This document shows, piece after piece, positions 4,090 through 63,027 of a stretch of DNA of 64,000 bases (its first letter is position 1; each line of letters starts with the position of its first letter). This stretch comes from Pyxicephalus adspersus (taxonomy: Eukaryota; Chordata; Amphibia; Anura; Pyxicephalidae): assembly GCF_032062135.1 (NCBI RefSeq), contig NC_092859.1:113458577-113522576 (forward strand). Direction: 5' to 3'. The notes under the pieces were generated by a model that was not told the origin of the DNA, made no database searches, and saw nothing but the letters and a program-made list of their open reading frames with translations. The translations under genes and the position numbers were made by a program.

Positions 4090-4136
4090 TGGGCCTGATT
4101 TATAAAAGCTGTCCAAAACTGGAGAAGATAGATTGT
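4090..4136 (+). repeat. Fragment of palindromic MITE (same family as 23637-23857)
   Basis: GGGCCTGATTTATAAAAGCT and CTGGAGAAGATAGA match the left arm of the element at 23637-23857. Confidence 0.6.
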
Positions 4137-5017
4137 AAGCTTTTCTGGGCATGCGTATCACATTTATTTTGTTTGCCACAGAATGTTATTTTGCATTGCA
4201 GCTTTATATTCCAGCAGCACACAATATGTCTGAGATATCCAACTCCAGTCTTTAAGGGCCACAAAAAGGCCAGGCTTTTCATATAAGCAGAACTTTTTAT
4301 GTCTTGTTGTAAAACCACACCTTACTAAACATATCTGCTAGAGAAACACTAAAATGTGTGAGGATCCCAGCCCTTCCCGCAATTGGGAAGGGTTAACAGT
4401 CGGAGTGCTCTTATTAGGTAAATGAGAGGTAAAATTTAAAGTAATTTAGCTGATGGAAATCCTAAGTGGAAGCTCAAAGGAAATCCTTAATTCTGTGGGT
4501 CACCGTCAGGAGAATTCCCAGACAGTTTATGAATGATAGTGACCTACATTAACCTCTTCCCTGCCTGTAGCATTCTGCTATGTGCATTCATTAAAGCATG
4601 TTCTGAGTCAGTGACCTGTGACCCTGCATGAAGTCATCAGAGGTACCTCAGCACCACTAAATAGCTTGCTTGTCATTCTACACACAGAGAACATGCTGGA
4701 AAATACTCACACTGACTGGACACATGACACACACCCTAAGCCTACATTCACAATTTATTCCCCCTCTAGAATGACAGGACGGATTTGTGTAGTGACAGAA
4801 CACAGGGGGTTCCAGATATAATATTCCCTGTTATATCTTGTTGTCTTTTATTAGAACTGACTTTGAAATACAGTTTTTGTATAATAAACCTGTTTCTTTA
4901 AACCGTACTTGTAAGAAATGGAAATGTCAGTGCTTGCAGCGTATCACATGAATGAATGAAGGGAAAATGTGCTTGTCAGATGTCTATGAGAGCCTGCTGT
5001 TATTAATATTATTATTA

Positions 5018-6681: not shown

Positions 6682-7033
6682 ATGAGTACCAACGACTACC
6701 ACGACCAACACCAGTTTTATCAAGGAGAGGAGGCAGAAGAGATGCCAGCTACAGAGAAGGACCTGGCAGAAGATGCCCCCTGGAAGAAGATCCAACAGAA
6801 CACATTCACCAGGTGGTGCAATGAGCATCTCAAATGTATGAACAAACGTATTGGGGACCTGCAAAAAGATCTCACTGATGGCCTCAAACTCATAGCCCTG
6901 CTGGAGGTGCTGAGTCAGAAGAAGATGTACAGAAAGTACCACTCCAGACCTAACTTCAGGCAAATGAAGCTGGAGAATGTGTCTGTGGCCCTGGAATTCC
7001 TGGACAGAGAACACATCAAGCTGGTGTCCATAG
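6682..7033 (+). CDS. FLNC: FLNC exon 1: start codon, N-terminus, most of CH1
   Basis: This exon codes for residues 1-117 plus one base. An acidic lead is followed by the CH1 actin-binding domain, visible as [17 protein letters not shown] and [19 protein letters not shown]. The ATG has A at -3. The donor ATAG|GTACAA leaves phase 1. The next exon lies 17 kb away. Confidence 0.97.
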
Positions 7034-19000: not shown

Positions 19001-22000
19001 GTGATGTGAATTGTATGGATGTGTTGTTGTTTAAAGGGTATATCCCTAACATTCCCAGCTATGTGTTGTGCTTGCCAGCACTATCAACCCATCCCACAAT
19101 GGTGACAAATTCCCTGAATTATTGCAGTCTGCTTTGTCTATGGTATAGTCTGCATAGGGGCATATGGGAAAGGCGTAGCAGTCTCTGGGGGAGTTAGCAT
19201 GAGCATTGCTGGTTTGGGGCAGGTGGTGGTATGCCGGCTCAGTGACAGGTGTCACACACTTGGTCCAACCACTTCAGCAGTTGGTCTTGATCCTCCAGGA
19301 GGAAACAGCTGAGAACACCAAAGCCTGAATGATCTGGAGTCACAACAGCATTCCTCAACATGACAGCTGTCTCCACACTACTACTGACAATCCATTACCT
19401 CTCCATATATTGCACGTAGATACAAAGAAATCCTAGAATCTTCTTCTATCCCTTTGGTTTTTGTGGCATTTACCAGGATTCTGAACATTGCAGTTTTTCC
19501 ATGTCATAAAATGATCAGCACATTTTCAAATAACTTGTGGTGCATAAAAATGGTGGCAAGGACTACTATGTGTGTAAAAACATCAAAAACTTGTAATCAG
19601 TTACATATTTTAATAAATAAGCTTGGGATGAAATAATCAAAAGATATACCTGGTATCATAAAAACTAATAATCAAGTAAATATATATACAAACAACACAG
19701 TCTCAGCACCCAGTTATTTAAGTCAAGGTACAATCACAAAGCAATGAATGTGACTTTCCCCAAACATTTACTAGTAGTGAATCAATGACGGTCAAAACAT
19801 ATGCGCTAGGAAAATTCATCTGTAGTAAGTGTTTGCTGTCAGAATGACTGCTTTATAAATATATTTTTATTAATATGACTATACCCCCAAAGGTGACTAC
19901 TTTTGCCACCAAGACTAACGCAATTTACAGCAAACTACACAATTGATGCTCATACCAGACAACTAGTTTGCACTAGAGGAAACTAACAAAATATGTGCAA
20001 TCCCTGAGTTGATTTACATGTTGTGGATCAGTCTCAGGTGCTTATGTTAATAACAGATAATTGCAGATTATAGCCAGGACAGGTTACATTTTTCATGAGA
20101 GATGTAAAAAATGAAGGGTGTGTAGAAGCAGAGAATAGGGCAAAGGAATTTGAGATGATATTATCTCCAGTGTCATTTGTGCTGCCAGCCTTGTAATTCC
20201 CTTCACTTTCACACCCTCCTTCCAGATGACTGGAGGGTGTACCGCCTCTAACACCCCCCACATCCCAGTCCCCACCCGTATATTCCTGGACATTCTCTTT
20301 GCTTTTGTTCTTTCAGTTTATGGAAAGAATGAGAAGATATTGGAATGGAGAGAATGCATGACTCATGTAGTGTTTGTGGCAGTATGTTTTGTACATGTGT
20401 GAGTGTGATGTGTTTGCAGGCTTGTGTGCCTTGTGAGGACAGGAAACCTGCCATGGCAGGAAATGCTATTTTTCTGGTTGTAATTTACTTCACAACTTTC
20501 ATTCACCGACCTGGAACATGTATGCAGTAAATAATGTCATGCTTGTTTCTGGTCAGTGATTTGGAAGGGACGTATGCCAACAGATCAACATGTAAGCCAC
20601 TGGACACTGAACTGTAGCATACAACTAATATCCTACTGTAACACGTGGTTTACCTTTACAGAAAAAATTATGATCTAATTTATGTGCTATTTAGAATGCT
20701 AACTGCCGGGCTGCCTTCAGCATCAGTACTTTAATTGTGTGACACAGACAGCATAAAAAAGACACACTCTTCCCTAATCTAATCATAACTAAACTGAAAG
20801 GTCAAAAGTAATTGTTTAAGTCATAAACAAACTATGGGCTACATGATATTTTCAATCAATTAGATCACTGTTTCTCAATCAGGGTTCTTCCAGAAGTTGC
20901 TAGGGATCCTTGTACAACTTGTGCCTCCTAAGTCAATGTAACTGACCCCCATGATTTTTTAGCTATCTGTAAGGGTGAAATAGTTCCCACTGACCACTAC
21001 AATGATGTACTTTGATATGTGGATACAGTAACTTTAGTAGAGGTTCTCTAAAGACCTGGAAGTAATTTCAAGGGTTCCACCAAGCTAAAAAGGTAGATAA
21101 ACACTGAAGTAGATGATTGAAACAACCACATAGTAGAGCACTCTCATTTTTCCATAATAGATTATAGGAGAAGCAGTTGATTGGCAATAGGTAAGCTGTT
21201 AATTCCCCAAAAACTTCTGTATTTAAAGCTGAAAACAAATGTCAGTCTGAGCTAGTCTTAGGTACGTTCATATTAACAGCAAGCTTTGCTATACATTTTT
21301 TCTGTACTCTTTTTATCTGGCCCAGGGCACACTTGCACGATGTTGGAAAATGTTTGCTGCCAGACCGCTTCTTCAAACACCCGTATAATCTACCAGAGAT
21401 TGTACTATAAAGGAAACATAAAAACACATTTTTTTTGTTCCTTTGGGTAAAACTTTGTTGTTCCCTCATTGTTGCTGACCAGGCCATATGTTCATCTGAT
21501 TCTAAGAGCACACATTTCCAGTTGTCCTTTTTTCTGAGACTGTAAGTGGTCAGAATCTAACATCTAGTTCCAGGCTACTTTTATCTACTCATGAAGGTGC
21601 CAGCCTTCCATTTGTGTATTGAGAGTGCTGCTGAATGTTTCCTTAAATAGCTTGCCGTTTCTGTCTCACAATTATATCTGGTGTTAGTCTGATGTCAGAA
21701 AAGGATTTGAATGTGGATCTTTTCATATTTCACATGCAGTTGGATTAGTGTGTGGATATGGGTTTTATTTGTGTCTGTATTTCTGTAAGGGAAATATATT
21801 GGGTAAGAATGTGTGACGCAAAAAGCCTCATTATTAGCCTTCTATAAATGTAGAGTTTTTGTTTTGTCTATGTGACAGAGACTGAAATGAAATAGCAATC
21901 TAAAATGTAAGATAAAAGAATCATGTCTCAGCACTGCGCTACATAAATCTTCTACCTGCCAGTGAAATACCAAATAATACAATGCCCATCCCTGCTGCTC

Positions 22001-25000
22001 TTTTTAGCTTTTACATTATTTATTGTATTTAATGTATGCAGCCTATACATGCTGATTTGTGATATACATCAATCAGTCTGACCTGACAACTGACAGATGT
22101 GACCAGGGAGCAGATGACATTCTTTACACAGTGTGTATCTGTCATTAGGTACCATAAGCCAAGACCTATAAATAGTCACTAAAAATATTTCATCTTTCAA
22201 ATGTGTGCAGGAGGTTTGTAGTGCTGTTCAGAAAAGCAAATTGATTGAAACCTTAAACACTGCAAAAAAGTAGTGGAGGCACTATTTATAGAGCTTTAAA
22301 ATTTTGACATTGTTCAAACAGTGATTTGTAAGTGCTCATAATAAAGTCAGAAAGTTAAATAAGTAGGCATATTACAAACCAAACAGTTTAGGTGGTGATT
22401 CATCCTTGTGAGTGCAGGCCTACATCCTACACAGTTATAATTGAAAGATGAACTTTGAGCACAAAACTTTCATAATAAGATTTCCCTCAATAGCCACAAA
22501 AACCATGATCCAAGTTTGTGGGCTCCAAATCCCTTTGCAAACAGATGCAAGACCAGGCACACTACACAAGCATTGAGAGCAGAAGTGTCTGGACTTAATA
22601 CAATATGCTTCTGCACAGCTTCTGCACCAATCTGGAAAATAACATATAGCAGCACACCAAGATTTATATTGCAAATACACCTGGATACAATCATATTCAG
22701 TGACAGATATATGAAGGAGTGCTGTATACACAGCATCCGTTCTGTTCTATGAAGGATGAGTAATCGGCACCCCACTGTGCTTCCCCCTTTTGACTCGCAT
22801 AGCGGTTGTTCCTGATCTGCCGTGAGATATCCATATACAATGTTGGGCGACCACTGTACATACCGGTATGTTAGATTCTCATCTGAGATGAACACAACTG
22901 TCTGTTTCAGATGGAGAGTATATGACATTTATAAAAAATTTAGAATACACATGTATTTAGACAACATTTCCTTATCTTGGCTGTACCAAGAGCAAAGTAT
23001 TTACTTATAAAAAGCCAAAATACAAATGAAGCATCCTACAGACATTCACATTGCATGTACAACCCTGTTACTGAACAATCTTACTAATGGAAGACTGAAA
23101 ACTAGCATGATTGCTCCTAGGAGGAGGAGGAAATGCTCTGGGTCTAAATGTTTAACTCATTGTAAAGAATACCACTTGGCTGGATGTAAAGCTGATCTAT
23201 TGGTTTAAGAAGTGACAGTCACACACCTGAAACAAGCATGCAGATAACTATATAATAAAATATGTGGCAAGTTGGGTGGCAATGAGCCAAACACCTGAGC
23301 TGTTTTCCTATTCTGGGCTAGTAATTCAAAAGTATTAAAGGCACAAGATCAGAACACCAACCAGGCTAATAGATTTTAGATGGAGTCAGCAATGGCAGTT
23401 TACATAATCTCTTCCACGCTTGTTAACAATGTCAGTTGTAGATTACAGTGGTCCTACAGTGTCCTTGTTATGTAGACGCTGCTAGGAAAAATGTTATCAG
23501 CTTGTATTGTCGTACAGTGTGACAGCAGTGCTGAGATGGATAAATTCCAGAATCCAGCAAACCTAAATAGCTGGCAAGTATTTTCCTGATATCTTCTAAT
23601 AGCTGCATACTTTTTATTTTTTGTATTTTGGATATTGGACCATATTTATTAAAACTCTCCAAGACTGTAAAAGATAGACTAATTTGGGTTAACCTGGGTG
23701 ATCCAGCAAACTTGCAGTGGATTGGGTTCAGGAGTAACAAATTTGTCAAATACAAGAAAATTATTTGATAGAAATCCATTCCAGCTTTGTTTGATCGCCC
23801 AGGTTCCCCTGTGATAGTCTATCATCTCCAGTCTTGAAGAGCTATAATAAATCAGGCAAAATGACTGAAAGCTGTAAATGTGTGCGATTGTACAGCTTGC
23901 ATTATCTGTTGATTATTTTGTATTTCAATATTTTTAATTAATTTTTGGAAATAAGGGAAGGTTAACAGTGCATAAAAAACATCAACATAGACTGTTGATT
24001 ATTTTGAACCATGCTAAAATGATCACCTTTATAGTGTTTTTGAACATTTGTCTGACACTTAAAATGATTTTTCATTTGCAGATTCAAAGGCCATTGTAGA
24101 TGGAAACCTGAAGCTGATCCTGGGTCTGATCTGGACTCTAATTCTACACTACTCCATTTCTATGCCTATGTGGGAAGATGAGGATGAAGAAGATGCAAAG
24201 AAACAAACTCCCAAACAAAGACTGCTGGGATGGATTCAGAACAAGATTCCACAACTTCCCATCACCAACTTTCATCGGGATTGGCAAGATGGCAAAGCAC
24301 TGGGTGCTCTGGTTGACAACTGTGCTCCAGGTATGTGAGCAATTTGTGATATAGCAAGGTACTACATCAGGGAAGTTTAGTTAACTTAATTTATTATTGA
24401 GCATACAGTACACAGTAGCAGTAGCATACAGTATACAGCATACAGTAACATATAAAAAGGTTCTTTAACAAAAAGCTTGTGTTCACAGGTTTTTGTTCAC
24501 TTCAAATAGATTTTGTATTTCCATAGACATTGCGAAACCTGCAAATGTAGGTCAGAAGAATGTAAACTGCAGGTCAAATGCACCTAATAATAAGTTGTGA
24601 ATAATCTCACAAGCATTCCAAACAGATTTCAAACTAATGCATTCAACACAAGCCCTTAGATTTGTTTGATAAGGATGGTATAAAAACTTCAAAATGATAG
24701 TTTCAAGATAGTTACATAAAGGAACTAGCAAGAAGTATTAGCAATCACTGTATGCTTTTATTTATAAATACATATGGTATATACACATAAATATAAGTAT
24801 AGTCATACCAGGAATATATCCTTTAACAAATAAGGGGTTAAAAAGTATATTATAAAAAGCATACTTCAACCCAGGGGCGATGTGAATCCTGTGATCGGTG
24901 TCCAAGTATTAGGTCATAGACAGAAATATCCCTAGATATCCCTGGGACATCTCCCCCCGCTATTCTTTGTAAAGGAAAAAACTGGCCAAACCCTAGACTG

Positions 25001-28000
25001 CTCCTGGCTTCTTTCAATATCTGCTTTGTCTATAGGCATATAGTGCACTAAAATGCACAAATAGCACAAAATCTGACCCAGTGGCAGTGATTAGCACTGC
25101 CATAGTATCACCTAACCCTGTGAGTAACTATTGTACTAAATTATCAAAAGTATTGATATATGTAAAAATAATTGCATTTTCATTGAGACCAAAAAACTGA
25201 CCTCTTCTTGTCTGTTAAATACATAGGGAAAATAATACCATGTGGTATTGTAGGAGTCAATCTCCTCCTGTTTGTTTGGAAACTTACATATTAATTCCTG
25301 TTACCTGTGTGCAGAATGGCATGGCAGCTCCAGTCTAAATAAATGCCATTGGTATGAAAGTATTCTGCACAAATATTATACAGATGACTCCAGCTGCCAT
25401 AGTTATAAGAATGCAAAATTTTTAGGCTATTTTAGGAAATCATAGCAAAAAATATAACTTATTGTTTTATAAAAAATAAATTGACATTATTTTACATATT
25501 GCCTTGGAAAGTATTTATTTGTTATACAAATTTGTATTCAACAAAAGGTTAATAACTTATTTTCCTCTAGCTTGTGTTCATTGTGTGTTAATCTGCCATG
25601 GGAGAAGTGTGGGGGGTGAAATTGGTGATCTTTTCTTTTGAGAATGTTAGTTCTCTGGCTGCCATGCTGATGCTTTGGCTTCCAACTTCACTCACCTGGA
25701 ACAAGTATAAAGGCCGGGCATCCAGCACATTTCTTGCACTCATTTATAGCATACTTGTTCTAGGGCTGGGACTCATAGGTAGCCAAGAGAGTTAGTATTT
25801 TCATCAGAAGGTCAGCAACAGCACTTTCTATATTTCTTTTATGACAGGAGCACTTAAAGCTTCCTATTTCTACCAAATCCCAAAGGGTATTTAAAGTTAT
25901 AAAAAAGACTTGGTTAAAAAGTAATCTTTTTGTAGATTGGTCACAACATTTCTATAAAAAGGAAGCTTCTTACTGGATGAGTAAGTAGTTCAGTAGCACT
26001 TTCACTGTGTGTGGACTTTCAGTGGAATTTAAATGGAATACATAAAACATTTTTTGACTATTATAGCTAGAGAGGTGCTTTTAATAGGTGCTTTTTATAC
26101 ACTGTTTACATAGCGTGCCATATTTTTCAGTCACTAATCTCCCATTTTGTTAGATCTGCTGTGTGCGGTTATAGTAACACAATCTTGGCAAAGAATAGGA
26201 AGTGACCACATAAGGCTGCCGAAAGATAGCTAGGGTGGTGTACTCTTGCTAGATGATTGTCAGGATCATTGGTCTTAGATGAAAATCTAGCTTGTGTACA
26301 GCTGTTCCCCGGCATTGATCATCTATCAGTTCTGGAGGATCAATGAATGATCAAGCAGGGATGACCATTGTAGTTTTATATGGGGGACACAGCGGAGTGA
26401 CTCTCCCTCGTCCTCCCCTCTCTATAAAAGAAATCAGAACAGTGCTATGTGTACAGCACTCATTTTACTGTCACTGAAAATAGTCACATAGGATTGTTTC
26501 CAGCAACAGAAATCTAACACACAGAACTAATAAGTGTTGCTTTAAATCCAGTTTTCTTTTTCTGTTGGGACCCCATGCTGGAGTTTTATGGATTTATGTA
26601 TAGTAGATAGGAATGCAAACTAAAATTGTACAGAATTTGAACCTTATTCAGTGTTCTCCCCAGAATTTTTTTTAAGCTGGGTGGGAAGAAGCTGTAGGCA
26701 GTTGGCAGCCCCTGTATTGTGACACAATTTTTCTACTGACGGGTAGTTACTTAAAGGTGCCGGGTGGTGCACCCAGCTAAAATGAGCTGGGGAGAACACT
26801 GCTATTACAGTCCCTTTAATAAATAAGACTGCTTTTCAACAGGACTGCTACATTAAGATAAACTATCCCAAGGATGGCTTACTGATTTGGATATATGACA
26901 ATCTGTTCCATGTTCCCTAATAAATAAATCATGAGAACTGAGTTGAACTGACCAATTTTTCTAAAATCCCAAAATATTTCTTAGTTTCTTTAACAGATAA
27001 CCAGAACTGACTTTGTACAACTTACTCTGTCCCTATTCTTATCCAGTAAGGTTATTATTAGTATTTGAAAGGGACAGGTCATGCTATTAGAGGAGGGATC
27101 TAATGTCCATTTATATGTAGGCATGAAACAATTTTCAGTGTAACGGTACACTTCTGCCCGTTCCCTTCCATGACAAGTGAGAAATGCGGTTGTAACATTA
27201 TCCAGTATAGCTGTCTGTCCGCCTGCCAGAGAAGCAGAGGGTGGGGAGAGATGTGTGTAATCTCATATAAGGCAAGAGGCAGCGAGCATAGTCTAGCTTG
27301 CACAATCGCATCATGCAGCATCAAATAAAACAGCACAATGACACAAACACACAGATAGATTTCAGTTTAGTCACTCCTGTCACTAATATATTAGGTGATA
27401 AGTGTTACTTGCAAGCTTAGAGGATTAGATCTGGGTTTTGGGAATATTATGATTGATTAGGTTAGCCATACTGTTTAGAGGAAATAACTAAATATTTGGT
27501 TATTTTTTATGTTATGACATGATGTCATTTTCTGCACTGCAAGCTTATTAATATGTTCGACCCCCATATGTATGATTCTAGATTGAAACAATATGAACAA
27601 TATAAGACACAGGGATATTATTGTAATGACTCATGGTTGACCGCCTAGGTTGTAACAAATGTGTCTAAATATAAAAAAGTGTATGTAAAATGTGACAACA
27701 GCAACATTATTATAATATTCTTATTATATATTTGGCCTCCCAAATGTGTGATTCTAAATTGAAACAATTTGTACAATATAAGACACAGAGATATTATTGT
27801 AATGACTCATGGTTGACCACCTAGGTTGTAACAAATATGTCTAAATATAAAAAGTGTATGTAAAATGTTACAGTGACAAAATATTGACTTGCAGCTCAAA
27901 GTTGGGAAATAATATTTTTTTCAATAGCTATCCAGGTATTGTCATGTAACACAAACCTACTACAGCTCAGCTGGTGGCTCTTTGAGAAGGTTTACCTATA

Positions 28001-31000
28001 TGGCGCCATACACCACTTCTAGAAACACCTACAACCACCACTTTCACCACAGGTTCTGCAAAACCTTTCTGGTTATATATGTTCTTTTTTTTACTGATCA
28101 TTAGACTAAATTATTAATTCCAATATTTGTTAGGATGTGTTTATGTGTTCAGATGTGATTGATTGCAATGCTGCAGCGAGACTAAAAGAATTTCAACAGA
28201 GCCTGATGGAGAATTAATATTTAATGCTCCAACATAAGTCAATAAAAATTGTGGTGATTGGGTACAGTAATTTTGAGGATGAATGAATTTCATTGTATCC
28301 AAATTATATGTATGCAGGACTTGCCGTTGGCTAAGCAACTAAAATTAGACATTTACATGTAGTTTATGATGTAGAAAAGTATTTAAAGTTCTATAAAGAG
28401 TGAAGAAAAGATACATTTTTTGTTTACATAATGTATTCTCTATTTTATATAGGTCTATGTCCAGACTGGGAGGCTTGGGACCCCAACCAGCCTGTGGAGA
28501 ACGCAAGAGAGGCAATGCAACAGGCTGATGACTGGCTAGGTGTGCCACAGGTGGGTCAATAAGTTAGGAAAATCCAAAATTCTTTTATGAGCTACTTACG
28601 TGTTATAAAATACATTTGTACAGACACAGATTGTTGTATCACTAAGCCTAACTTTGCTAACACTTTATGTCATTATGTGCTATGATGCTCCTGCATATTG
28701 TTATCATGCTTGTATAAGAATGGACTGCAATTTAGGTCTGTTTAACATTTGGTAACAATCCATGGCCATGAGGAAAATAAATCAAAATTGCATGGGTCCT
28801 GCATTCTTTCACTCTACGTCTAAATGGAATAGAAAAATAGTGCATCTTGATGACTTTGGCCTGCATGGCTCATAGGCTATAAATCTAGAAGTCACAGCAG
28901 TAAACAGAGCTAGAATCTTCAAATGGACACTAATGGAATACTCTGGCTATGAGCTCACTGCCTTCCATATGCACAACACCATATTAAACCTCTGACATTA
29001 TATAATGTCATTGCTTCTGAACTATAAACCTCATTGTCTGTAGTGAGTCATTCACTAAGCCTGGTATAATCCATGAATATGGATATAAAAACAGCTTTTA
29101 TGTAGGCATTTATTTCTCTATCTCGCATGTCTGATATCAAAACTACATTCCATTTGGTAATGTAGTAAAAAAAAAAAAATACCATTATTTTTTATAGCAC
29201 ACATTATTGTGTTTTGTTCATGTGGAACAGGTACTGTGTTTGAATAACCTAACAATACTCACCTTCTTTCACATGCTGTTGTTGTAGGTCATTGCTCCTG
29301 AAGAAATTGTTGACCCAAATGTAGATGAGCATTCAGTCATGACCTACCTGTCCCAGTTCCCCAAGGCCAAGCTGAAGCCAGGTGCCCCTCTAAGATCAAA
29401 GCAGCTGCATCCCAAGAAAGCCATTGCTTATGGTCCAGGTATGAAAAATGTGTTAACAAATCAAATTCTAAAATCCTTTAAGTTTTTACTGTTTAACTTT
29501 AAAAAGTCTTGTAGATGGGCCCATTCACATATACATCGTCTTTCAATTAAAATTATGCCTGTATGTCACAGATTAAAGGCATAAAAAAGATTTATTATTA
29601 AACAACTAAAAAACAAACACTTAATGCAAAATGCAAAAGTCCATATCAGTTAATTAACATGAAGTCTGGCCAGTACATGACTAGTTTTATATATATATTA
29701 AACTACTTGTTCCTTGCACTGTTTTATTAAGGGTTAAAGCGGGAGACCAGGTAGCCCCCGCAATTCCCTTCCTGCTGGCTCTGTCAGTGTAACACGATGT
29801 CTGGGTGAGCTCATGCTCTCAATCCGCTCTGCTCCATCTCTACTTGGCAGCATCGGGATTGTTACAATATGTTGATCCGAAGCAGTGAGACCGCCTGCTG
29901 CCAAAACTCCCAAATGTGGACAATTAAGAAACAGCCAGAACCAAAACTCACACTTTAGTGAGGCCTTATACATTCCCATCAGCCTTAGACATATCTACAG
30001 ATGCAACAGTGAGAACATGGCCAAACCTGCAGTGTGTCCTCTTTATAGAGCTTCTGAATTGTTGGCAAGATAAATAGATAGATTCAGGTGCCTTTATTCT
30101 GTAGTTTTTTTTAATTCATAATTAGGTAGCATTTAAAAAAATATATATTCTACATCATAAAACAGTATTTATGTATGACCCTAAAATTATATTTACACAT
30201 TTGTGGCCCTAACTAACTCAGGTTAGGTATTACATAATTTCATAACACACGAAATACAATTTCTTTCCTATGACATAAAGAACATATATGTCTGTGAGAT
30301 ATTGATGCTCTATTTGCTGCTGTTTGGTTCTGATTGCTGTGTTGTATGCTATCCTTTTAGGAATTGAGCCTCAAGGAAACATGGTTTTGAAACCCACCTT
30401 CTTCACAGTAGAAACTATTGAGGCTGGACTGGGAGAAGTTCTGGTATTCATAGAAGATCCTGAGGGACATACTGAAGAGGTAAAAATAAATGCAACAGCT
30501 TTAAAAAATATGTCTGGCTAGATAAAACAGCTCTCAAATTCTAATATGCCATTATTATGTTGATAACATTGGTAATCTGGCCAAAACATAGTCAACCTTG
30601 TATGGCCTTGGGGCGTAAATGTTATTTTTAAACACCCATATTATGGCTTCCAGTAGAACCTATTACTGTTAATAGAGACATAACAGCTAACACGGGGACT
30701 TTATGATCTGATTGAGTGACCTATTACCATAAAGACCTGATCTGGACACAAATGAGCCCAATGTTACAAAATAAATAAATGCATAAACAAATGCATATAT
30801 ATTTAAACAGAAAAGGAACTTAACTTAATATTATAAATATTGTTTTTTGTCTTTTTCTTGGAATAAGGTATATAGATAATTTTATAGTATATAGTAAAAA
30901 CCTTTTTGTTTAGTTTGTAGTCTATGGTAGCATGTTTAGCCTGTCAGGAAATTTTTTTTGCTGCTGAGTCATCTACTCAATATTTCTTTTGAAGGCAAAA

Positions 31001-34000
31001 GTCGTCCCCAATAATGACAAGAAAAGAACCTACTCTGTCAGCTATGTGCCAAAGGTGGCAGGTCTTCACAAGGTAAGTAAAAAAGTATCTAAGAAAAATT
31101 ATTTAGGTGTCACAACCCAAAAGAAGGGAGCTCACTACAACCTTTCACGTAAGATGGGTATATAGCTTCCTGAGGATAATTGGGAAGGGGGATATTCACC
31201 CATCCTCAAAATAAGATATCTGCCCATTCTCATACAGACCAATGACAGTTCTGTGTAGTGAGAAATACATTTTGTTACATGTTCTCTATGGCAGAGGGTT
31301 TGACAATAGCTTGTTTATTACCCCTACAAATATCCAGAATTCAATTACAAGATTCTCGCCCATAGACTGTTAAAGTTATGTGCATTGTTCACAAATTTCA
31401 AGCAAGATTTGCAAACTGATCCTAGGCAGATGTCAACCACATAGTTAAATGTATGGTAATTATTCTCTTGTATATTATAAAGGCCCTTTTTTTTAAAAGA
31501 AGAGTCTTCACTTGATAATATTCCAAAAATTGGAATTTGTTGTTTGTTTTGGTAAAACTGAAATATGTATTTAGAATATGCACATACATGCAGTTATATT
31601 AAGGCTCTTCTACCAGAGTTCACAGTGATAACCTTTACTTAAACTTGTTCTACCACAGGTCACAGTGTTATTTGCTGGACAGAACATCAATAAAAGTCCA
31701 TTTATGGTCAATGTTGCCATGGCACTTGGAGATGCCAACAAAGTGACAGCTAGGGGACCTGGTCTGGAACCTGTGGGAAATGTTGCCAACAAGCCAACCT
31801 ACTTTGATATCTACACCGCAGGTAGAGATAACCTTCAAAATGTTCCAAATACAACATTTTTATTTTATTTTATAATGTAAACCTCAGCCATTCGGAGGAA
31901 GCAATCCATAGGCTATGATCTGGCATTTAGTGATTTGTCCTCTAAAAAAAAATCTTCTGCCCTATGTCCATAGGTGCTGGTTCAGGAGATGTTGGGGTGG
32001 TCATAGTGGATCCTCAGAATCGTCAAGACACAGTGGAAGTCATTTTGGAAGACAAAGGTGATAACATCTATCGCTGCACATACAGACCCAACATGGAGGG
32101 ACCTCACAAGATCTTTATTACCTTTGCTGGAGCCCAGATTCCAAAGTGTCCTTATGTTGTTAATGTCTCAGAAGGTGAGAAAATGACAATTTAAGAGTGG
32201 ATGCATTTCCAAGTCCAATGTAGCCACAAGTCTTCCTGATTTACTGTATATATTTCACTTTCATCTTGTGTCAATAATTGTCCTAACCTCGTGCACATGC
32301 TGTTTTGTTCTCTGCCAAGAAGTCGTCATTGTATCTGTGATCATACAGTCAATTAATTTGTTCAACTATGTGAAGTAGAAATTCCTATTTATTTTATTCT
32401 CAGAGAATTAGGTAAAAATGACCTAATATTAGGTAACCTTTGGTAAACCTCCATGACCATAAGAAAAATAAATCAAAACTTTACTAGTTTCACATTCCGT
32501 AACATATGTCCTAATGGAATAAAAATAGGCCATCATGATGACTTTTGTCTGCATGCCTCAAAAGCGCAATTAACTTCCACTTCTCTTCCAGTAAAACAAA
32601 GCTACTGAGCCAATAAATTGATTTATTCCAAGTAACTGGAAGTAAAACATGAATGATAGTCGTATCATTGTAAAGATTTAGGGCTGAATATAACAATTAT
32701 TAGTATCTCTAAGTCTTCTTATATTGATCATGGCACACCTATAGACTGCAATTAATTAGTAAATACAGTTTGTTATTTTATGTTTAATGACTGCTTATGT
32801 TGTCTTTCTATTATTTGTTAGGGAAAAACGCAGAATAGCGTCTGCATTGCTTATAACAATTAGTGATATTCCAGCTGTAGGGTGAAAAATAAAATCTACT
32901 ATTTGAAATGAGCCATTCTGGCACTCTTAATTAGTTCTTCAGACCCACAGATGATGATTGTTTCCCCATTTTTGCAGTATGATTAGCTCTACAAGTATTC
33001 TTCTACTATGCATGGTTTACTGCATGCATAAATGTAAAGAGGTAAAATAAATTGTCTGTCATTATACATGTGAAGGTCTCTGTCAGCTTGTCAGTGACCA
33101 CTTTGTATGACTGTGTACCATGCATACATTAGTCCTTGCTTTATATGAACTTCTCTCCCCATGTTTCTTGCCTTCCTCATAGCTGTTGCCTTGGCACCCA
33201 GCACCCCTCCCCTGCAGGTCACCCCTCAGGCCATTGCTACCCCGCCTCCTGAAACAGCCAAGAAAGTGGCTCCCCCACCTCCACCTAAACCTAAGCCACG
33301 CAAATCAAGTTAGTATGGCCTAAGCATGGCCTGGGAAGTGTGAAAGAGCACAACCATAAGGTGTCTTGCCCATGTAGAGTAGACTCTGCCTGTGCATGAC
33401 CATATTTTTGTGACCAGGCTCTGTAATTATACATGATTGTTCCACATGTATAAACCTGCTTGCTCAACGCATGGCCTGTCCCCATACAATGCCTTGCATA
33501 AGGTTTTTAGACTGTAAAACCTGTCAAGCACATCCCTGTTTATATGATCATTGTTCCCTTCTGCATGCCCATTGCATATCCAGCCCTACTTATTATGAGA
33601 AGAAATCCCTGGTGTTCAGGTCCCCTTTTTGAACGACTAATACATTTTTATTCTCAGAAACAATTTTTGGGTTATTCTTATGACTGGATCTTGCCTGGTA
33701 AATACATGACCACCTTAGAAATATTCTGGCTTCCCTTGTAGGGAATATTTGTTTAGGAACCTGTGTCACCTGCCCCCTGCTTTGTTCTCTGTAGGAATAT
33801 TTGGAGACTCGTGAAAAGACGAGGCATAAACTGAACTGGCTAAACATGGCCACCACATTGATAGCACAGATTGTATGTAAAGGCATTTTTTATAGTTTTG
33901 GATAAAGTAGGGGAGGGTTGGACTCTTGGTAAAGCTTGACAAAATCCAACATTTTAGTTTTTATAGGAAATAGGTGGGGGGAATCTCAGTTTCTGGGACA

Positions 34001-37000
34001 CCCATTTGGGTAGAGACCAACAATTATGAATTTATGGTGGAATAGGGATGTTAAATTCACTGCTTGGAGTAGGTTCTGAAACAAAAGAATATTGTTAACA
34101 TTAGTAAACATTAGTAATCCCTGGAAGACACAGCAGTGTTTGCTACATTCCTGTTAGAATGGGAAACATTTATGTAGGGAATGGGAATAGGAAGTATTCA
34201 TGATCAACAAACATTGCATTACTGTTTGAAATGCTGCTTAAGGAGATCAAAGGATATAAGCACTGGATTCGTGTATAGAATAAATTATGATAAAGTTTGT
34301 TTGACTGTAAATAGATAATATTTTTTTCACTTATTTCCCTGGGTACCAAGGTATTCATAACATTGGGATCCCAGTAACAGTGTATGGTAAGAACTATAGC
34401 TATCACTGGTAGTTTAGCTTACTAGGTGTCCCTACACCACATTAGGCCAGATAGGACATCCAGATAGGATGTCCTATGCACATCCTTCTATCCAAGCCCC
34501 ATGTTAAGGTTGTCCTCCATTGCGATTATTCTTCTCAATATTGGAGATTGCTCATATGGTAATTTCAAGTATATTTACAATTTACAAGATTCAGTACACA
34601 AAAAAATGAATACAGCATTGTAAAAAGAATGATCATAAAAGCCCATGTTTTTAAAGTATTTGAAATCCAAAGAAAATGAACTTTGGGATTTCCTAGGAAT
34701 GCATCTTGTGTATCCATCCTTAGGACATGAGAGATGTGTGCACAGTTTTGAAGTTAGTTTGCTTGTGCATGTAGCTTTTAGTCCTAGGTAAAACTAAACT
34801 AAATACCTGTGACTTGACTACAAAACGTATTTGATGTATATCAGGCGAATGTTTTCACTTACAATCTTTTGTCCCAGCATTTGTGGTTCAGTCTGTGCTA
34901 TTATCTTTAATCACTGGTCTTACTTATGCCTATGATATATTGTGTCTTTTGCAGCTTGTAATCCCAATGCCTGTAGAGCATCTGGTCGAGGACTGCAGCC
35001 TAAAGGAGTGCGTGTTAAGGAAGTGGCTGACTTCAAAGTGTTCACCAAGGGTGCAGGAAGTGGGGAGCTTAAAGTTACTGTTAAAGGACCCAGTAAGTTG
35101 ACAATAAAACTGTACAATCTTGCATCAGTTTAAGGGTACACTATTGTAAGAAATCAGAGTGGGCATGAATCCAAAACATTCCAAAGTAATGAAAATTATT
35201 TATTGGATCTTTAAGTGTAACTCCAGCTGGTTATAACGAAACTACATGTGTCCAAAACGCCTCTAACCTATAAAGAACTCACTGCTCATGTTCTAGGAGA
35301 TGATCTAATGGAGATTAATATTTAGCATATTACCAACGCAGCCGGTGCTCTGGCTAATTTTTACCTAGCACCAGTGGGTGGGTTATGGAATGTCATTACG
35401 TACAATTCAGGACCAGCAGTGGCTATGACTTTGGGTATTGATAAATAGGTGCATAGCAATGGCTAGCACAATAGACAGTACACTATTGCTAACAACAGAT
35501 TAAACTTTCATTACTTAGCTAATACATCTCTTTAAAAGGAGGTATGTTGATTAATTGATCTCAGATTTGACTGGCAGGGAAATTACTAAATCCCCGCTAA
35601 CTGGACTATTCCAGTAAATATTGACTTTCCCTTGCTTTAATATTATTTATATTTATGTTTCGCTAGAATAGGTGGGGCAAGCAAGTAACTCAAATTTAAA
35701 GGAAACATGGAAAAAAAAATCATTATCAATCTTAATCGATCTTCATAGTGGGCATGTCATTTAAAAATCAATATCCCGTATTAACATTTCACTGTCAAAA
35801 AAAGACAATATCACAATGAATGTCTGGGCAGTTAAAAATTGGTATGAAATCAAAATGTCACAGAACATATAATACAAATGAATTCAATGAATGAAAATTG
35901 AATGAATGATTTTGATCATCTTTAATCAAACTAATTTCTGACCACCAGAGGGCACAGAGGAGCCAGTGAAAATCCGAGATGTTGGCGATGGCGTGTATGA
36001 GTGTGATTATTACCCAGTAGTGCCTGGAAAATATGTTGTGACCATCACTTGGGGCGGATATGCCATTCCAAGAAGGTAAGCATAACAATTAAATAAATAC
36101 CTAATCCAATCATCTCCAATGGAGAAAATTCAGGAATAAAGAATTGAAGATCTAATATTATTTTTAAATAAACTTTTGATAAATTTTATCAAAACTTTTA
36201 TTTGTCTTCAAATGCAAATTTCACTGTTCTTTTCATATACAGTCCATTTGAAGTTATTGTTAGCCCTGAGGTTGGAGTACAGAAAGTCAGAGCATGGGGT
36301 CCTGGCCTTGAGACTGGCATGGTGGGCAAATCTGCTGATTTTGTAGTAGAAGCCATAGGCACAGAGGTTGGAACACTTGGTAAGAGATCCAACACACAAC
36401 ACTAATGTCTGTTTGTATACTGTGTTTTAATATCCTGTGATGTGTCATTGTTTGCCAACATTATGTTAATTGTTATTTCTAGGCTTCTCCATTGAGGGCC
36501 CCTCACAGGCAAAAATTGAATGTGATGACAAAGGAGATGGCTCATGTGATGTGCGCTACTGGCCCACTGAGCCTGGCGAGTATGCTGTACATGTAATCTG
36601 TGATGATGAAGACATCAAGGACAGTCCTTTCATTGCTCATATCCTACCAGCCAGCAACAAATGCTTCCCAGAGAAGGTAAAACGCAAATAGATCTCCTGT
36701 GTTAAAAGCCCTATTTCTGCAGTCAGACCTTCAGTATAAAACAAACTGAAATCTGGATTTTTAACTTTTTGTCCATCCAGTAGTAGTATAGTACTGGAGG
36801 GTATATACATGATATTAAAACACATTTTGGTAGTAGATATACAAATATTAAACATGTTATCTCAAGCAATCTGTTCCTTCACACTTTTATTAACAATAAC
36901 ACTTTATTTTATAATTACTGAAAACATCAAAGAGCTACCTACACAAATAACACATATATACCTTTTTTGGGGGGTGGGGGGGTTAAGGCCAGTGCAGTTG

Positions 37001-40000
37001 CAAGTTTCACCTACCTTTTTTGGGGGAGAACTAGTTCATGTAATTGCAGTTTCAGTTTTAACCTTTTTGGTTTATAACCCCCCCCCCCTTTCCAGCCATG
37101 TCTACCACCTGTTCTTTTACAAGTTCAAGAGGGAGGGTGAGGAGCAGCGCATTTGTCTAACTGGGCTCTGACCTTTGCAGACTCATCCTCTAATCCTTCG
37201 TTCCTTTCCAAACATAATTTATATGACCGGGAAACTATTACTAGCATCCAAGGCACAGGAACCACTCTTGTACAACACATGTGACTGGTGACTTTAGACA
37301 TAGAGGGATCATAGCAGAAGGAGAGAGATAATCCTACACTAAATGTAATAAAATGTACATATCTACGACTTTGTATCATAGTAATTACTATGCATAAGAC
37401 AAACGTAGAATAAAAAAATACAGGGGACATTTCAACTTTACAAAAAATAAATTAAACTGTATGGCCTTGTCTTTGACTGTGCTTATGGTCGATTCTTCTC
37501 AACACTTTTCAGGTTAAGGCATATGGTCCAGGTCTGGAACCAACCGGCTGCATAGTAGAACACCCTGCTGAATTTACTATTGATGCCCGTGCCGCTGGTA
37601 CAGCTGAACTGAAGATCTATGCACAGGTACATAAATATGTATTGTTCTCCTGTGTCATTTTTGGGTTGATTTTGAGTTTGGTCCTTTTTAGATCTTTTTA
37701 AACTTAAAGGTACATGGGACCTTTTTTAACGCTTCAGCAGTGACAACTTTTATATAACACACTTACCTGTAACTGTCTTTGTTTGTTTTTATTCAGGATG
37801 CAGAGGGAACACCAATTGACATAAAAATTAAAGACAATGGAGATAACACTTACCTGTGTGTTTATGTACCAATGAAACCAATCAAGCACACTATTATCAT
37901 CTCATGGGGGGGAGTTAATATCCCCAACAGCCCTTACCGGGTGAGTAACAGATACCGAAACACCATTGATTGACCACCATATTTTGACAATACAATTTCA
38001 GTATTTTAATTAATTTGTATTGTAATATTTCATAAATAAGCCAATGTCCTACAGGTATACACAGTTGTTCTTATATTGATTATTACTGATTTTAGGTATC
38101 AGTGGGTGAGGGTAGTCACCCTAACAAAGTTAAAGTCTATGGACCTGGAGTAGAAAAGACAGGTCTTAAAGCTAATGAGCCAACTTACTTCACTGTGGAC
38201 TGCAGTGAGGCAGGACAAGGTAAGATTGACTTCTTGAAAAGTGTTATCTTTCGGAAACAATATTGATATCATTCAGAATCTTTGATTTCGAATCATTTTT
38301 TTTTTCCACAGGTGATGTCAGCATTGGAATTAAGTGTGCACCTGGTGTGGTGGGGCCAGCTGAAGCTGATATTGACTTTGACATCATCAAAAATGATAAC
38401 GACACTTTCACCGTGAAATATACACCTCCTGGAGCAGGGAGATATACCATAATGGTGTTATTCGCTGACCAAGTAAGAACAAACTGCACATCATTGGACT
38501 ACAAAATATAATTAATATCTTATATACTTATATACTTGCTATGTGGACTGCATAATTCACTCTCCATATGTAGAACATTCTTGTGTAAACCCATAATATA
38601 TATGTGCATTTAGGTTCTCTTTCTCCTGAGTTCTTACAAGTATTCTTTCCATTTTAGGAAATACCAATCAGCCCCTTCCGTGTTAAAGTAGATCCATCTC
38701 ATGATGCCAACAAGGTACGAGCAGAAGGCCCAGGACTTAACCGTACAGGTGAGATTTCTATGTGATTCCCAAAGAATTCAGTAAGTGGTAAAAAAAACTG
38801 GGCGGGGATGCATAGGGAACTGTGTTTTTCTAAACTTGTAAAATTTATCATTGCCATTTTTTCAGAATTGTTAGGATTAGTCATAAGAAGTGTTTCTCTG
38901 GTTTTTCATGTTAGAAAAGTTTAACATATAAAAAGCATCTAATCTACTCTTTTATGTTTTGAAAAATAATTTAATCATTTACAAGTTATGCTTGGGCGAT
39001 TCCTTTCTACCTTTAGGTAGCTTTATTGTTTATTGCCTACTCGGTTATGTCAATTGTAATAACACATTTGATATTACACAGGTGTTGAAGTTGGAAAGCC
39101 CACACACTTCACAGTATACACTAAAGGTGCTGGAAAAGCTAAGCTGGATGTTCAGTTCACTGGGACCATGAAGGGTGAAGTTGTGCAGGACTTTGAAATA
39201 ATTGATAACCATGACTATTCATACACTGTAAAGTATACAGCTGTGCAACAGGTATGTCCATCATAGTGATGTCATTGTGATGTTTAAGGTTCCCTTTATT
39301 ACTTGTAATGTGTTGTTTTGGTCAGTATCATTAAATTGTAAGCTCTGTAAGGCAGGGTCCTCTTATCCTCCTGTGCCATAAATAAGGTATGCAGGTTTCT
39401 TAAATTAACTTTTGTATAGAACTGTGAAATATGTTGACAATTTAAAAATATTAAAAAAAATAAAAAGAAATAAAACAATAAAAATAAATGGTATACTTGT
39501 TTTACTTACATTGAACATATGCCCTGAGCTGCATACTCATGTTTTTTGCTGTCTAACAGGGTAATATAACCGTATCAGTCACCTATGGAGGAGATCCCAT
39601 CCCAAAAAGTCCATTTATTGTTAATGTGGCACCTCCTCTTGACCTGGGCAAAGTTAAAGTGCAAGGACTCAACAACAGTGAGTATCCACATGTTTTACAA
39701 TTTATATCTTGTGTTATCAGTGGCTAATAGTTAATATCAGGGCTCTTGATATTGGCTGTCTCGTGTCTTTTGAGAGATTTATATTTGTGTTTATTTTAAT
39801 GTTCTCTTTCTGCCTGTTACCTGAATGGTAAATATTTTTGTTAATGCAGAGGTAGATGTTGGGAAGGACCAGGAGTTCACAATTAATACCAGTGGAGCAG
39901 GAGGTCAAGGAAAGGTTGATGTGAAGATCACATCCCCATCACGGCGTCCAATTCCTTGCAAGGTGGAAACTGGTGTCACTAGCGAGATTCACACTGTAAA

Positions 40001-43000
40001 ATACATGCCTCCTGAGGAGGGACCATACAAGGTGGATATTACCTATGATGGCCATCCTGTGCCAGGAAGCCCATTTACAGTGGAAGCTGTCATGCCTCCC
40101 GATCCTTCAAAGGTAAGAAAATACAAGGAGTCCTTCATGGCTTTGTTCCTTTATGGAATGAAAATGTGTTCTTTCAATATTTTATGCTTAAACATTGTCT
40201 TCACATTGTAATCAAAGAATTAATTTTCTTTTTCCATTAGTTTTAATTTATTCTAGTTCTGCTCACAATTTATCTGTTTCTCCTTTTTAACAGTGCATTA
40301 CCTAAGAGCATTATTCATATTCTGATTTATTCTTCTACCTCTGTTCTGTGTCTTTGGCCAGTTATTTTCAGCCATGTGTTTCTCATTGTTGTTTGTGCAA
40401 GATGAGGGGTTAATGTCAGGCCAGAGCAGTCAGAAAGGAGGGGGATACATATCTCTGTTTACATAAGCCTATAGCTTAAAGCTGCAAAAAGGCCAGGGAC
40501 AAAAACAATACATTTTGGAATGAAGAATATACATCTCAAATGCCTTGCGAATATATGATGCATTTTGGCAAATCAATGAGAATGAACAACATAGCACAGA
40601 AATAAGTCATCTACCAAGTGTCAGTTGCTATGGGATAGAATAAGTGAGCTGTCCAGGCACATTAATTCACAGATGGCCTCATAGATGTGTGAATTTCACA
40701 GCAGTAAAGAGCTTGAATGCAACCTGATGTTCACAGACATCCCTTCTCACTTAGAAGTTAAATGAGAAGTCATAAACTGGCCTTTTTTAGTAACAATAGA
40801 TACCGAGGAAAGGTAACGTCTATAAGAAATATGAAGCACATGGTGCAAATGCTGACTTTTGTGAAAAAAAATAGACATGGCCTGTAGTGGGAATTGATCA
40901 GTCTATTTTATTAACTTTCCATAAGTATTCTCATATGTCTGGGACATTTCCTTGTGATGAGAGTGAGGAGGGAGTAATGGTATCAGCAACATATCCATTT
41001 TAGTCTTACTATTAATATCCAGATGTGGCTGCTTACAGGTTTGCATTTTGGAAGACACAATATACAGTTTACAAATGTATTTGACTTATTCCTTAGTCCA
41101 CCATATGGACATTTAAAAAGCTTGTGTATTAGTTCCAAAACATTTACAGCATCCTGTGAATATTTACAAAATATAATAATTGTATTTTGCACTGAATTTA
41201 AAAAGAGTGGTTGTGACCTTTATTATGGCTACACAAGTGAGAATTATGCAAATCATTAATAAATGTAGTGCATTATTTAATATACTTATTAAAAGTTATT
41301 CTTTTGTCTTTTACAGGTTCGTGCTTATGGACCAGGCCTCAAAGGAGGTTTTGTGGGCAAGCCAGCACCATTTGCAATTGACACCAAAGGAGCTGGTACT
41401 GGAGGTCTTGGTCTTACAGTTGAAGGACCATGTGAGGCAAAGATAGAATGCCAAGATAATGGAGATGGTTCTTGTTCAGTGTCCTACCTTCCCACAGAAC
41501 CAGGAGAATATTCTATCAACATCTTGTTTGCAGATGCCCACATTCCTGGTTCCCCTTTCAAGGCTGACATTCGACCTGTGTTTGATCCCAGCAAAGTGAC
41601 AGCAAGTGGTCCTGGCTTAGAAAGGGGAAAGGCTGGGGAAGTGGCCACCTTCACCGTGGACTGCTCAAAAGCTGGAGATGCTGAGCTCACTATTGAGATT
41701 CTTTCAGATTCTGGTGCAAAGGCTGAAGTGCTCATCCAAAACAACAGCGATGGGACCTATAGTATTACCTACATCCCATCATGTCCAGGGGCTTACACAA
41801 TCACCATTAAATATGGAGGACACGCAGTACCTAAATTCCCTGTTCGTGTAAATGTTGAGCCAGCAGTGGATACTAGTGGAGTAAAGGTGTTTGGCCCTGG
41901 AGTAGAACCCAGAGGTAAGTGAGTAGAGGAAAATAAGCCTTCAAAGACTATCAGTTTTCAGAGAATTTGTTAGTAAGATGTATAAATACTTTTTAAAATC
42001 TACCCAGTATCTGCACTCACAACATTTTAGCATGGGAAACGTGACAGATGCATATGTTCCCCATTTTTGGATTCTTCTACAGTAGTCTTAAATTTATGTT
42101 TATTATATTATTAAGGTATGTACATAGTAAATATAATATAATCCTTATTCCTTCTCCTGTTTTAGGTGTTCTCCGTGAAGTCACCACAGAGTTTACTGTT
42201 GATGCTCGCTCTCTAACAAAGACAGGCGGTAGCCATGTCACTACCCGTATTATCAGTCCTTCAGGTGCTGTCACTGAAAGCTTTATATCTGACAATGGAG
42301 ATGGAACCTATCATGTGCAGTATACAGCATTTGAAGATGGTAAGATCCAGGAATATTTATCACTAGCTTTCTATTATTATTAAAGATATTACAACTAGCC
42401 CAGCAATTAGTCAACTGCAAACAAGGCAGAAAGACCATTTCATTATAAATGCAGTTTACAAATGTAACATTCACTTCTGTGTGGTATATATGCCTCAGTA
42501 ACATAAGTAGTAACCCTTATTTATGAAATAGTTTTGGAGTACATGATGCAGTTTATGAAATATTGTTATTGTGTTATAGATATAGATTTTTTAATTGTAT
42601 TATATCCAAGCCAAAACCTCAGTACATGCTACTACAGGTTATTTACTACAGTTTTGTGTCACTGTTCTATCCTAGTCGATAGTTTTGTATAGTGATGAAA
42701 CCATGTGAGCATTTTCTTACACAATCTTCTTTTCTTATGCCAGGGATTCATTTGGTAGAAGTTTTGTATGATGATGTGCCTGTACCTAAGAGCCCATTCC
42801 GTGTTGGCGTCACAGAGGGCTGTGATCCATCCCGTGTGCGAGCATATGGCCCAGGACTAGAAGGCGGACTGCTTAACAAGTCCAATCGTTTTACTGTAGA
42901 GACCAGGTAAGGGTGTACAATTATCACACATGGGCAAAGCATACTTCAGAATACTCTGCTTTTTGAATATTTTCTCCAAACTTTCCTGGTAACAATACAT

Positions 43001-62625: not shown

Positions 62626-63027
62626 GGGAAAGTGAGCAGCAATGCCATGATTGTCTATGAGGGAATGCCAGCAACAATGCCATAATAATTGATGGGGAAT
62701 GCGGGCAGCAATGCCATGATTATCAATGGGGAATAGGGGCAGCAATGCCATGTAAAGCAGTAGGGAACGTGGGTGGCAATCCCACCATTACCAATGGATA
62801 AGACAGGTGGCGATGCCTTGATCACCAGTGGGGAACGTGGGCAGCAATGCCATGATTACCAAGGAGAATGCAGGTGTCAATGCTGTGATTGCCAATGGGG
62901 AATGTGGGCAGCGATGCCATAATAAACAATTGTGAATGTGGGTGGCATTGTGATGATTGTCAATGGGGAAAGCGGGCAACAATACCATGATTACCAAAGG
63001 GAATGCAGGTGGCCATGCTGTGATTGT
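62626..63027 (+). repeat. 34-bp degenerate minisatellite, about 12 copies
   Basis: Diverged units of 33-35 bp share the pattern GGGAATG-GGGCAGCAATGCC followed by ATGATT and CAATG. It lies in ATP6V1F intron 1, 94 bases after the 28-bp array and unrelated to it in sequence. Confidence 0.92.

What the first reader, a model, noticed from the sequence alone, without database searches (positions are those of the whole stretch)
33183..33308. Undescribed-looking 42-residue Pro/Lys-rich cassette exon between Ig2 and Ig3 of filamin C
Seen: strong pyrimidine tract plus CATAG acceptor, GTTAGT donor, 126 nt, phase 1 on both sides matching exons 8 and 9, open only as a proline-rich peptide (14 Pro, 6 Lys/Arg) with [12 protein letters not shown] near its end, and GC-rich against an AT-rich intron. 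Known: filamin splice variation is mainly described at the hinges and Ig19/20, and human canonical FLNC as I recall it joins Ig2 directly to Ig3. Inference: a tissue-specific isoform may carry a flexible basic SH3/EVH1-ligand-like linker close to the actin-binding domain, changing reach or partner binding.
Basis: partly seen in the sequence, partly recalled or inferred. Interest (0 to 1): 0.85.

Follow-up and report, generated by a model that had tools for sequence, protein, structure and literature searches.

The report
Ancient optional linker in muscle filamin
A frog gene for the muscle protein filamin C carries a small optional coding segment, also present in filamin C of sharks, bony fishes, other amphibians, lizards and snakes, that would add a flexible proline-rich strip near the protein's actin-gripping end.

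Summary
The exon is real. The window holds a complete frog FLNC gene (CDS 6682-54002, 47 coding exons plus a 24-nt microexon). The 126-nt segment 33183-33308 lies in intron 8, fits phase 1/1 and encodes 42 residues exactly between filamin repeats R2 and R3. Splice sites and open frame alone are not beyond chance (five other intronic intervals, one a real microexon, pass the same cut-offs). Comparison settles it: 83 of 95 species behind 136 listed relatives carry the homologous insert, from sharks to squamates (lists ranked towards carriers); seven show inclusion and skipping. It already exists in unnamed predicted isoforms; ten paper searches listed nothing describing it. Two blocks are conserved: PQ[SA]xxTPP and PPxxPKP[RK], an SH3-ligand type (58 of 76 peptides, shuffled mean 0.3). 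EVH1 motifs are absent. The donor is weak and four GCATG (Rbfox-type) motifs lie within 300 nt downstream, the only such cluster in this gene's introns. Best reading: a regulated third linker ("hinge 0") with an SH3 docking site near the actin-binding end. One bird was listed, without the insert; no turtle or crocodile and no credible mammal was listed. Tissue splicing and partner binding are untested.

The parts
33183..33308 (+). Cassette exon (exon 8a), 126 nt, phase 1-1, encodes [43 protein letters not shown] together with the split codons of exons 8 and 9
   Evidence: sequence; homologous inserts in 83 of 95 species
33163..33182 (+). Acceptor and pyrimidine tract GTTTCTTGCCTTCCTCATAG, of average strength
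   Evidence: 18 of 46 constitutive acceptors lower
33309..33314 (+). Weak donor CAA|GTTAGT
   Evidence: 2 of 46 constitutive donors lower
33212..33250 (+). Conserved block [14 protein letters not shown] (PQ[SA]xxTPP)
33269..33308 (+). Conserved block [14 protein letters not shown](T), SH3-ligand type PPxxPKP[RK]
31974..32174 (+). FLNC exon 8, end of filamin repeat R2
34955..35092 (+). FLNC exon 9, start of filamin repeat R3
33324..33567 (+). Four GCATG motifs (33324, 33394, 33469, 33563), candidate Rbfox-dependent intronic enhancer downstream of the weak donor
   Evidence: 4 or more in 32 of 5000 shuffles; only such 300-nt stretch in the gene's introns
33010..33026 (+). Two upstream GCATG motifs (33010, 33022)
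6682..54002 (+). FLNC gene, start codon to stop codon, 47 coding exons plus a 24-nt microexon

Best explanation
A genuine, ancient alternatively included exon of FLNC, at least as old as the last common ancestor of sharks and bony vertebrates. When included it inserts a probably disordered, basic, proline-rich linker of about 42 residues exactly between repeats R2 and R3, separating the actin-binding end (ABD-R1-R2) from the compact R3-R5 unit and presenting a PPxxPKP[RK] SH3-binding strip. The most likely readers are SH3 proteins of the Z-disc and costamere already reported to touch FLNC, such as CAP/ponsin (SORBS1) or nebulette/nebulin. Inclusion is probably set by an Rbfox-type enhancer (weak donor plus four downstream GCATG), hence muscle or neural regulated. 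Shown here: the exon, its position, its conservation, skipping in predicted isoforms, and the motif cluster. Inferred: flexibility, SH3 binding, which partner, Rbfox control and tissue.
For: Gene model and exact phase fit. Pfam puts the end of R2 before and the start of R3 directly after the insert, with no domain in it. Inserts at the same junction in 83 of 95 species and 108 of 135 scored proteins. Both forms in 7 species (Anomaloglossus, Pleurodeles, Lissotriton, Anolis sagrei, Scatophagus, Acipenser, Polyodon). Window against X. tropicalis 38 of 43, against the shark Mustelus 22 of 39 aligned residues. Blocks A and B conserved above the N-terminal part (mean pairwise identity 0.68 and 0.69 against 0.37, 19 non-teleost rows). 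PPxxPKP[RK] in 58 of 76 peptides; in 500 shuffles the count averaged 0.3 and never passed 3. PPPPP run coded CCC CCA CCT CCA CCT, so not a DNA repeat. Weak donor and GCATG cluster. Review passages: CAP/ponsin binds FLNC R2, R3-R5 compact (PMC7216277); nebulette SH3 said to interact with filamin C (PMC10017460).
Against: No junction reads could be examined, and predicted isoforms are not reads. The one relative whose 9,543-base contig is too short to be this gene's genomic DNA, so presumably a transcript, skips the exon (P0099, unnamed source). Binding of CAP and nebulette to FLNC was, as I recall, measured with mammalian proteins, which seem to lack the exon, so those contacts do not need it. 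PPxxPKP[RK] is missing in 18 of 76 peptides, including both salamander rows, the caecilian, the bichir and 2 of 4 squamate rows; strict class II PxxPx[KR] is missing in 10 of 76, including all 4 squamate rows; block B is lost in four divergent teleost copies that keep block A (Silurus meridionalis, Tachysurus, Serrasalmus, Alosa). Sequences are related, so the counts are not independent. The GCATG cluster is p about 0.006 by shuffling before allowing for the 8 motifs tried; one other kilobase of the window, upstream of the gene (about 3600-4800), is as rich per kb; its conservation could not be tested.
Confidence: 0.6

Rival explanations
1. The exon is only a spacer: a proline-stiffened, charged linker that sets distance and freedom between ABD-R1-R2 and R3-R5, with no dedicated partner; composition and length matter, not motifs.
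For: Pro/Lys-rich, no Pfam domain; length stays 39-45 in 69 of 75 distinct peptides; hinge 1 is a known filamin precedent.
Against: Two blocks keep order and spacing beyond composition; four copies shrink to 28-30 residues yet keep PQ[SA]VRTPP.
Confidence: 0.22
2. Block A (PQ[SA]xxTPP), not the SH3 strip, is the working part: a proline-directed phosphorylation site or a short strand that folds back on a filamin repeat.
For: Block A is the most widespread part (Pro in 76 of 76, Gln in 72 of 76, the following Thr/Ser position T 67 and S 5 of 76 alignment rows) and survives where block B is lost.
Against: The residue before T varies (R, C, H, A); Anomaloglossus has N for T; no kinase or docking data.
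Confidence: 0.12
3. In this frog the exon is constitutive, simply part of FLNC, with no regulated choice.
For: Most listed relatives carry it, but those lists are ranked in favour of carriers.
Against: Weak donor; skipping is predicted in 7 carrier species including the frog Anomaloglossus; the listed Rhinoderma protein and a frog-like presumed transcript skip it.
Confidence: 0.05
4. Chance open frame with lookalike splice sites (pseudoexon).
For: Splice sites and frame alone give 6 such intervals in this gene's introns.
Against: In-frame homologs at the same junction from sharks to squamates.
Confidence: 0.01

Closest known systems
Filamin hinge 1 (between R15 and R16), alternatively spliced in FLNC and FLNB
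   Same: Short linker between Ig repeats, skippable, spliced out during myogenesis (PMC7216277, passages)
   Different: The cassette sits near the actin-binding end rather than mid-molecule; different sequence, Pro/Lys-rich with an SH3-type motif; both choices occur in all four combinations in predicted isoforms; not in canonical human FLNC (recalled)
FLNC R20 insertion (82 residues), lacking in a zebrafish FlnCb splice variant
   Same: FLNC docking insert controlled by splicing; needed for Xirp1 binding (PMC3280289, passages)
   Different: Inside a repeat, not between repeats; present in human FLNC; different partners
SH3 ligands of the nebulin/nebulette and SORBS type (e.g. a XIRP2 peptide; recalled, PPPTLPKPK-like)
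   Same: PPxxPKP[RK] core; Anolis and Crotalus copies read PPPTLPKPRKPT
   Different: No binding test; the XIRP2 letters are recalled, the paper was not held
Rbfox-dependent cassette exons of muscle and nerve (recalled class)
   Same: Weak donor, GCATG cluster within 300 nt downstream
   Different: No Rbfox binding or loss-of-function data for this exon

Membership tests
FLNC gene (orthology) | Colinear exons, R20 insertion and hinge 1, FLNC-level identity | tested here: met
   Exons colinear with recalled human FLNC; 97.3% to Anomaloglossus and 96.3% to X. tropicalis filamin-C
FLNC gene (orthology) | Two CH domains and 24 filamin repeats | tested here: met
   Pfam run on the X. tropicalis ortholog P0003: 24 filamin and 2 CH stretches; on the window's protein only R2 and R3 were scanned
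Vertebrate cassette exon | Homologous exon conserved in frame at the same junction | tested here: met
Vertebrate cassette exon | Both inclusion and skipping isoforms | tested here: met
   7 species with both among listed proteins; gene predictions, not reads
Vertebrate cassette exon | Junction reads in this frog | not testable with these tools
   no RNA reads available
Filamin hinge/interdomain linker | Lies between repeats without a domain of its own | tested here: met
   R2 match ends 6 residues before the insert, R3 match starts at the first residue after it; no Pfam match in the insert
Filamin hinge/interdomain linker | Calpain-sensitive, flexible in solution | not testable with these tools
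   needs protein
SH3 ligand | Class II PxxPx[KR] or class I [RK]xxPxxP core | tested here: met
   window has both; class II in 65 of 75 relatives (shuffled mean 36.1), class I in 64 of 75 (36.7); class II absent in all 4 squamate rows
SH3 ligand | Measured SH3 binding | not testable with these tools
   no assay; no PDB sequence match to the frog or Anolis peptide (chains under 20 residues are not in that library)
Ena/VASP EVH1 ligand | [FWYL]PxPP core | tested here: not met
   absent in window, 3 of 75 relatives (shuffled mean 1.6)
Rbfox-regulated exon | (T)GCATG cluster downstream | tested here: met
   4 in 300 nt; 4 or more in 32 of 5000 shuffles; 8 motifs were tried
Rbfox-regulated exon | Motifs conserved and inclusion Rbfox-dependent | not testable with these tools
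   no intron DNA of relatives available

The most novel reading that the evidence does not exclude
FLNC of many jawed vertebrates has a third, splice-switched hinge that works as a nebulin/nebulette- or SORBS-type SH3 docking site near the actin-binding end, turned on by Rbfox in striated muscle, and lost in the lines leading to birds and mammals. Fish and frog FLNC disease models would then contain a wiring module that human FLNC lacks.
Probability: 0.2. Interest if true: 0.72.

Novelty: new variant of a known kind. Interest (0 to 1): 0.55.

Why it matters
FLNC is a cardiomyopathy and myopathy gene, and the passages I saw describe splice variation of FLNC at hinge 1 (PMC7216277) and, in zebrafish, at the R20 insertion (PMC3280289), not here. 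A conserved optional linker near the actin-binding end could change reach, force transmission into R3-R5 and partner recruitment, and would be a difference between human FLNC and the fish and frog proteins used as models. It can be tested at once with existing RNA-seq and one peptide-SH3 screen.

Tried and rejected
Pseudoexon/chance: rejected by conservation, though splice sites alone could not reject it. EVH1 and WW (PPxY) ligands: 3 of 75 and 0 of 75 relatives, neither in the window. CIN85-type PxxxPR: in the window peptide, but in only 7 of 75 relatives, below the shuffled mean of 21.8, so not the conserved property. Profilin-type [AGLSI]PPPPP: in the window, 7 of 75 relatives, shuffled mean 1.8. 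QKI, CELF/RBM24, MBNL and PTB motifs: no clear enrichment. GCATG cluster as a tandem duplication: Tandem Repeats Finder at score 30 lists no array there, but it misses copies under about 70% alike. Cassette-only protein search with the Anolis insert: 11 candidates, 6 hits, squamates and a lungfish, too insensitive to prove absence elsewhere. PDB search with the frog and Anolis peptides: no match. Papers: ten searches; from titles and abstract beginnings none is about this exon; most subscription papers are not in that library. Synonymous against nonsynonymous change was not computed: no DNA of relatives was available. FLNA and FLNB were not searched for a related exon. No structure prediction was run. 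My notebook entry wrongly lists the coelacanth among carriers; its listed protein skips the exon.

Full report
Observation. I read 31800-35400 and built the whole gene. A tblastn of human FLNC recalled from memory located the exons; boundaries were chosen by frame, splice consensus and protein match, six of them corrected by eye, and assembled to an uninterrupted CDS of 2,715 residues, 6682-54002, 47 exons. In the recalled human sequence residues 470 and 471 fall on the exon 8/exon 9 junction, so the canonical human form, as I recall it, joins R2 directly to R3. The interval 33183-33308 sits in the 2,780-nt intron 8 and reads [43 protein letters not shown] with the split codons. GC is 0.60 against 0.35 for the gene's introns.

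Chance. Position weight matrices from the gene's own 46 introns put the acceptor mid-range (18 of 46 constitutive acceptors lower) and the donor near the bottom (2 of 46 lower). Six intervals of 24-300 nt in 39,173 intron bases meet the same two cut-offs, fit the phase and lack stops; one is this exon and one is the 24-nt VSIGGHGS microexon. By summed score 23 intervals reach the cassette's value, against 9 in reverse-complemented introns.

Conservation. A protein search with the spliced frog protein, scored over about 30 residues of R2, the insert and 47 residues of R3, gave 817 hits of which the best 120 were listed; a second one centred on Anolis gave 1,317 hits, 120 listed; a cassette-only search gave 6. 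The 136 proteins P0002-P0137 were read at the R2-R3 junction. One (P0122, Sceloporus, which holds the insert but then jumps to a later part) could not be scored; of the other 135, 108 include and 27 skip the insert. By species, 83 of 95 include it: frogs 4 of 5, salamanders 2 of 2, caecilian 1 of 1, lungfish 1 of 1, squamates 5 of 9, gar 1 of 1, sturgeon/paddlefish 2 of 2, bichirs 1 of 2, teleosts 63 of 66, sharks and rays 3 of 3; coelacanth 0 of 1, bird (Rhea) 0 of 1, one unnamed frog-like protein 0 of 1. The lists are ranked in favour of carriers, so these are not frequencies. Seven species show both forms. Some carriers are named filamin-A or filamin-A-like; the four compared (P0013, P0014, P0062, P0065) are 84-86% identical to this FLNC. 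Nine more divergent teleost copies (78-82%, probably the second FLNC paralog, inferred) were also compared: eight carry a shortened or altered form and one (P0108, Astyanax) skips it.

Constraint. Window against X. tropicalis is 38/43 in the cassette, 47/50 in the R2 tail and 49/50 in the R3 head; against the shark Mustelus 22/39, 35/50 and 44/50. So the cassette changes faster than the repeats but stays recognisable across jawed vertebrates. On 75 distinct relatives' peptides plus the window (three odd models P0102, P0110, P0111 dropped before the count), mean pairwise identity among 19 non-teleost rows is 0.37 for the N-terminal part, 0.68 for block A, 0.64 for the short middle and 0.69 for block B; over all 76 rows 0.43, 0.64, 0.45 and 0.81. 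PQ[SAT] occurs in 70 of 75 relatives (shuffled mean 14.6) and TP[PA]/SPP in 73 of 75 (43.6). PPxxPKP[RK] occurs in 58 of 76 (shuffled mean 0.3) and is missing in 18, among them both salamander rows, the caecilian, the bichir and 2 of 4 squamate rows. Class II SH3 PxxPx[KR] is in 65 of 75 (36.1) but in none of the 4 squamate rows, which read PPPTLPKPRKPT or variants; class I [RK]xxPxxP is in 64 of 75 (36.7); EVH1 cores in 3 of 75. Rows are related by descent, so these are not independent trials.

Position and consequence. Pfam matches R2 up to residue 89 of a test piece in which the insert begins at 96, and R3 from residue 44 of a piece whose first 43 residues are the insert; the insert alone matches nothing. 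The best-scoring solved structures are FLNA chains 4m9p and 6ew1, which begin at this linker. The FLNC review PMC7216277 (passages) says R3-R5 is compact, describes hinge-1 splicing, and lists CAP/ponsin as binding R2. PMC10017460 (passages) says the nebulette SH3 domain interacts with filamin C. PMC2777869 (passages) says CAP binds filamin C at focal adhesions. PMC3280289 (passages) reports a zebrafish FlnCb splice form without the R20 insertion that does not bind Xirp1. Of the original papers behind the partner claims, Zhang 2007 and Eulitz 2013 are not held and Holmes and Moncman 2008 was not looked up. I recall that a XIRP2 peptide bound by nebulette SH3 reads PPPTLPKPK-like; no call verified this.

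Regulation. Four GCATG lie within 300 nt downstream of the weak donor (33324, 33394, 33469, 33563) and two upstream (33010, 33022). Four or more appear in 32 of 5,000 dinucleotide shuffles; among 300-nt stretches, 5 of 2,931 overlapping intron windows, all here, and 0 of 1,600 outside the gene reach four. Per kilobase, however, one stretch upstream of the gene (windows starting 3600-3800) is as rich. GCATG ranks second among the 5-mers present downstream, and twelfth upstream, against the gene's introns. Eight motifs were tried. Downstream GCATG beside a weak donor is the usual Rbfox-activated layout (recalled), which would fit muscle or nerve, but nothing here shows it. Cassette and hinge-1 choices occur in all four combinations in the scored proteins (included without hinge 60, included with hinge 48, skipped without 17, skipped with 10); predicted isoforms do not prove long-range linkage.

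Mammals and birds. No turtle or crocodile is among the 120 proteins listed, although fishes and sharks with the insert score about 440-520 bits there; the only mammal name is Mustela putorius on two tilapia-identical records (P0036, P0042), probably mislabelled. Rhea appears only as a skipping form. This suggests loss or non-annotation in those groups, but only cluster representatives at 90% identity and the top 120 of 1,317 were visible, and no genomic DNA of them could be read.

Verdict. A real, old, already predicted but apparently undiscussed alternative linker of filamin C. Known kind (alternative interdomain linker of filamin), new place and new content. The SH3-docking and Rbfox steps are hypotheses with specific, cheap tests.

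Noticed in passing
45800-45823: 24-nt microexon TGTCTATTGGTGGACATGGATCAG in intron 28 encoding VSIGGHGS, with better splice-site scores than the cassette; missing in 13 of 135 scored relatives, so it too may be skippable.
   Followed up: partly
46317-46412: Exon 30 encodes [32 protein letters not shown], most of hinge 1; missing in 77 of 135 scored relatives.
   Followed up: partly
61910-62531: 28-bp GC-rich minisatellite (GCTGTGATATGGGGGGAGGCCTGGCCGT) interrupted by a run of N, probably an assembly gap inside the array; a 34/67-bp array follows at 62636-63026.
   Followed up: no
27544-27872: Tandem duplication of a 176-bp unit (1.9 copies, 90% match) in intron 2.
   Followed up: no
P0036, P0042: Filamin of Nile tilapia also listed in nr under the name Mustela putorius; looks like a mislabelled record, not a ferret carrier of the exon.
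   Followed up: no
P0102: Gekko kuhli model has extra unrelated residues between the insert and R3, probably a gene-model error.
   Followed up: no
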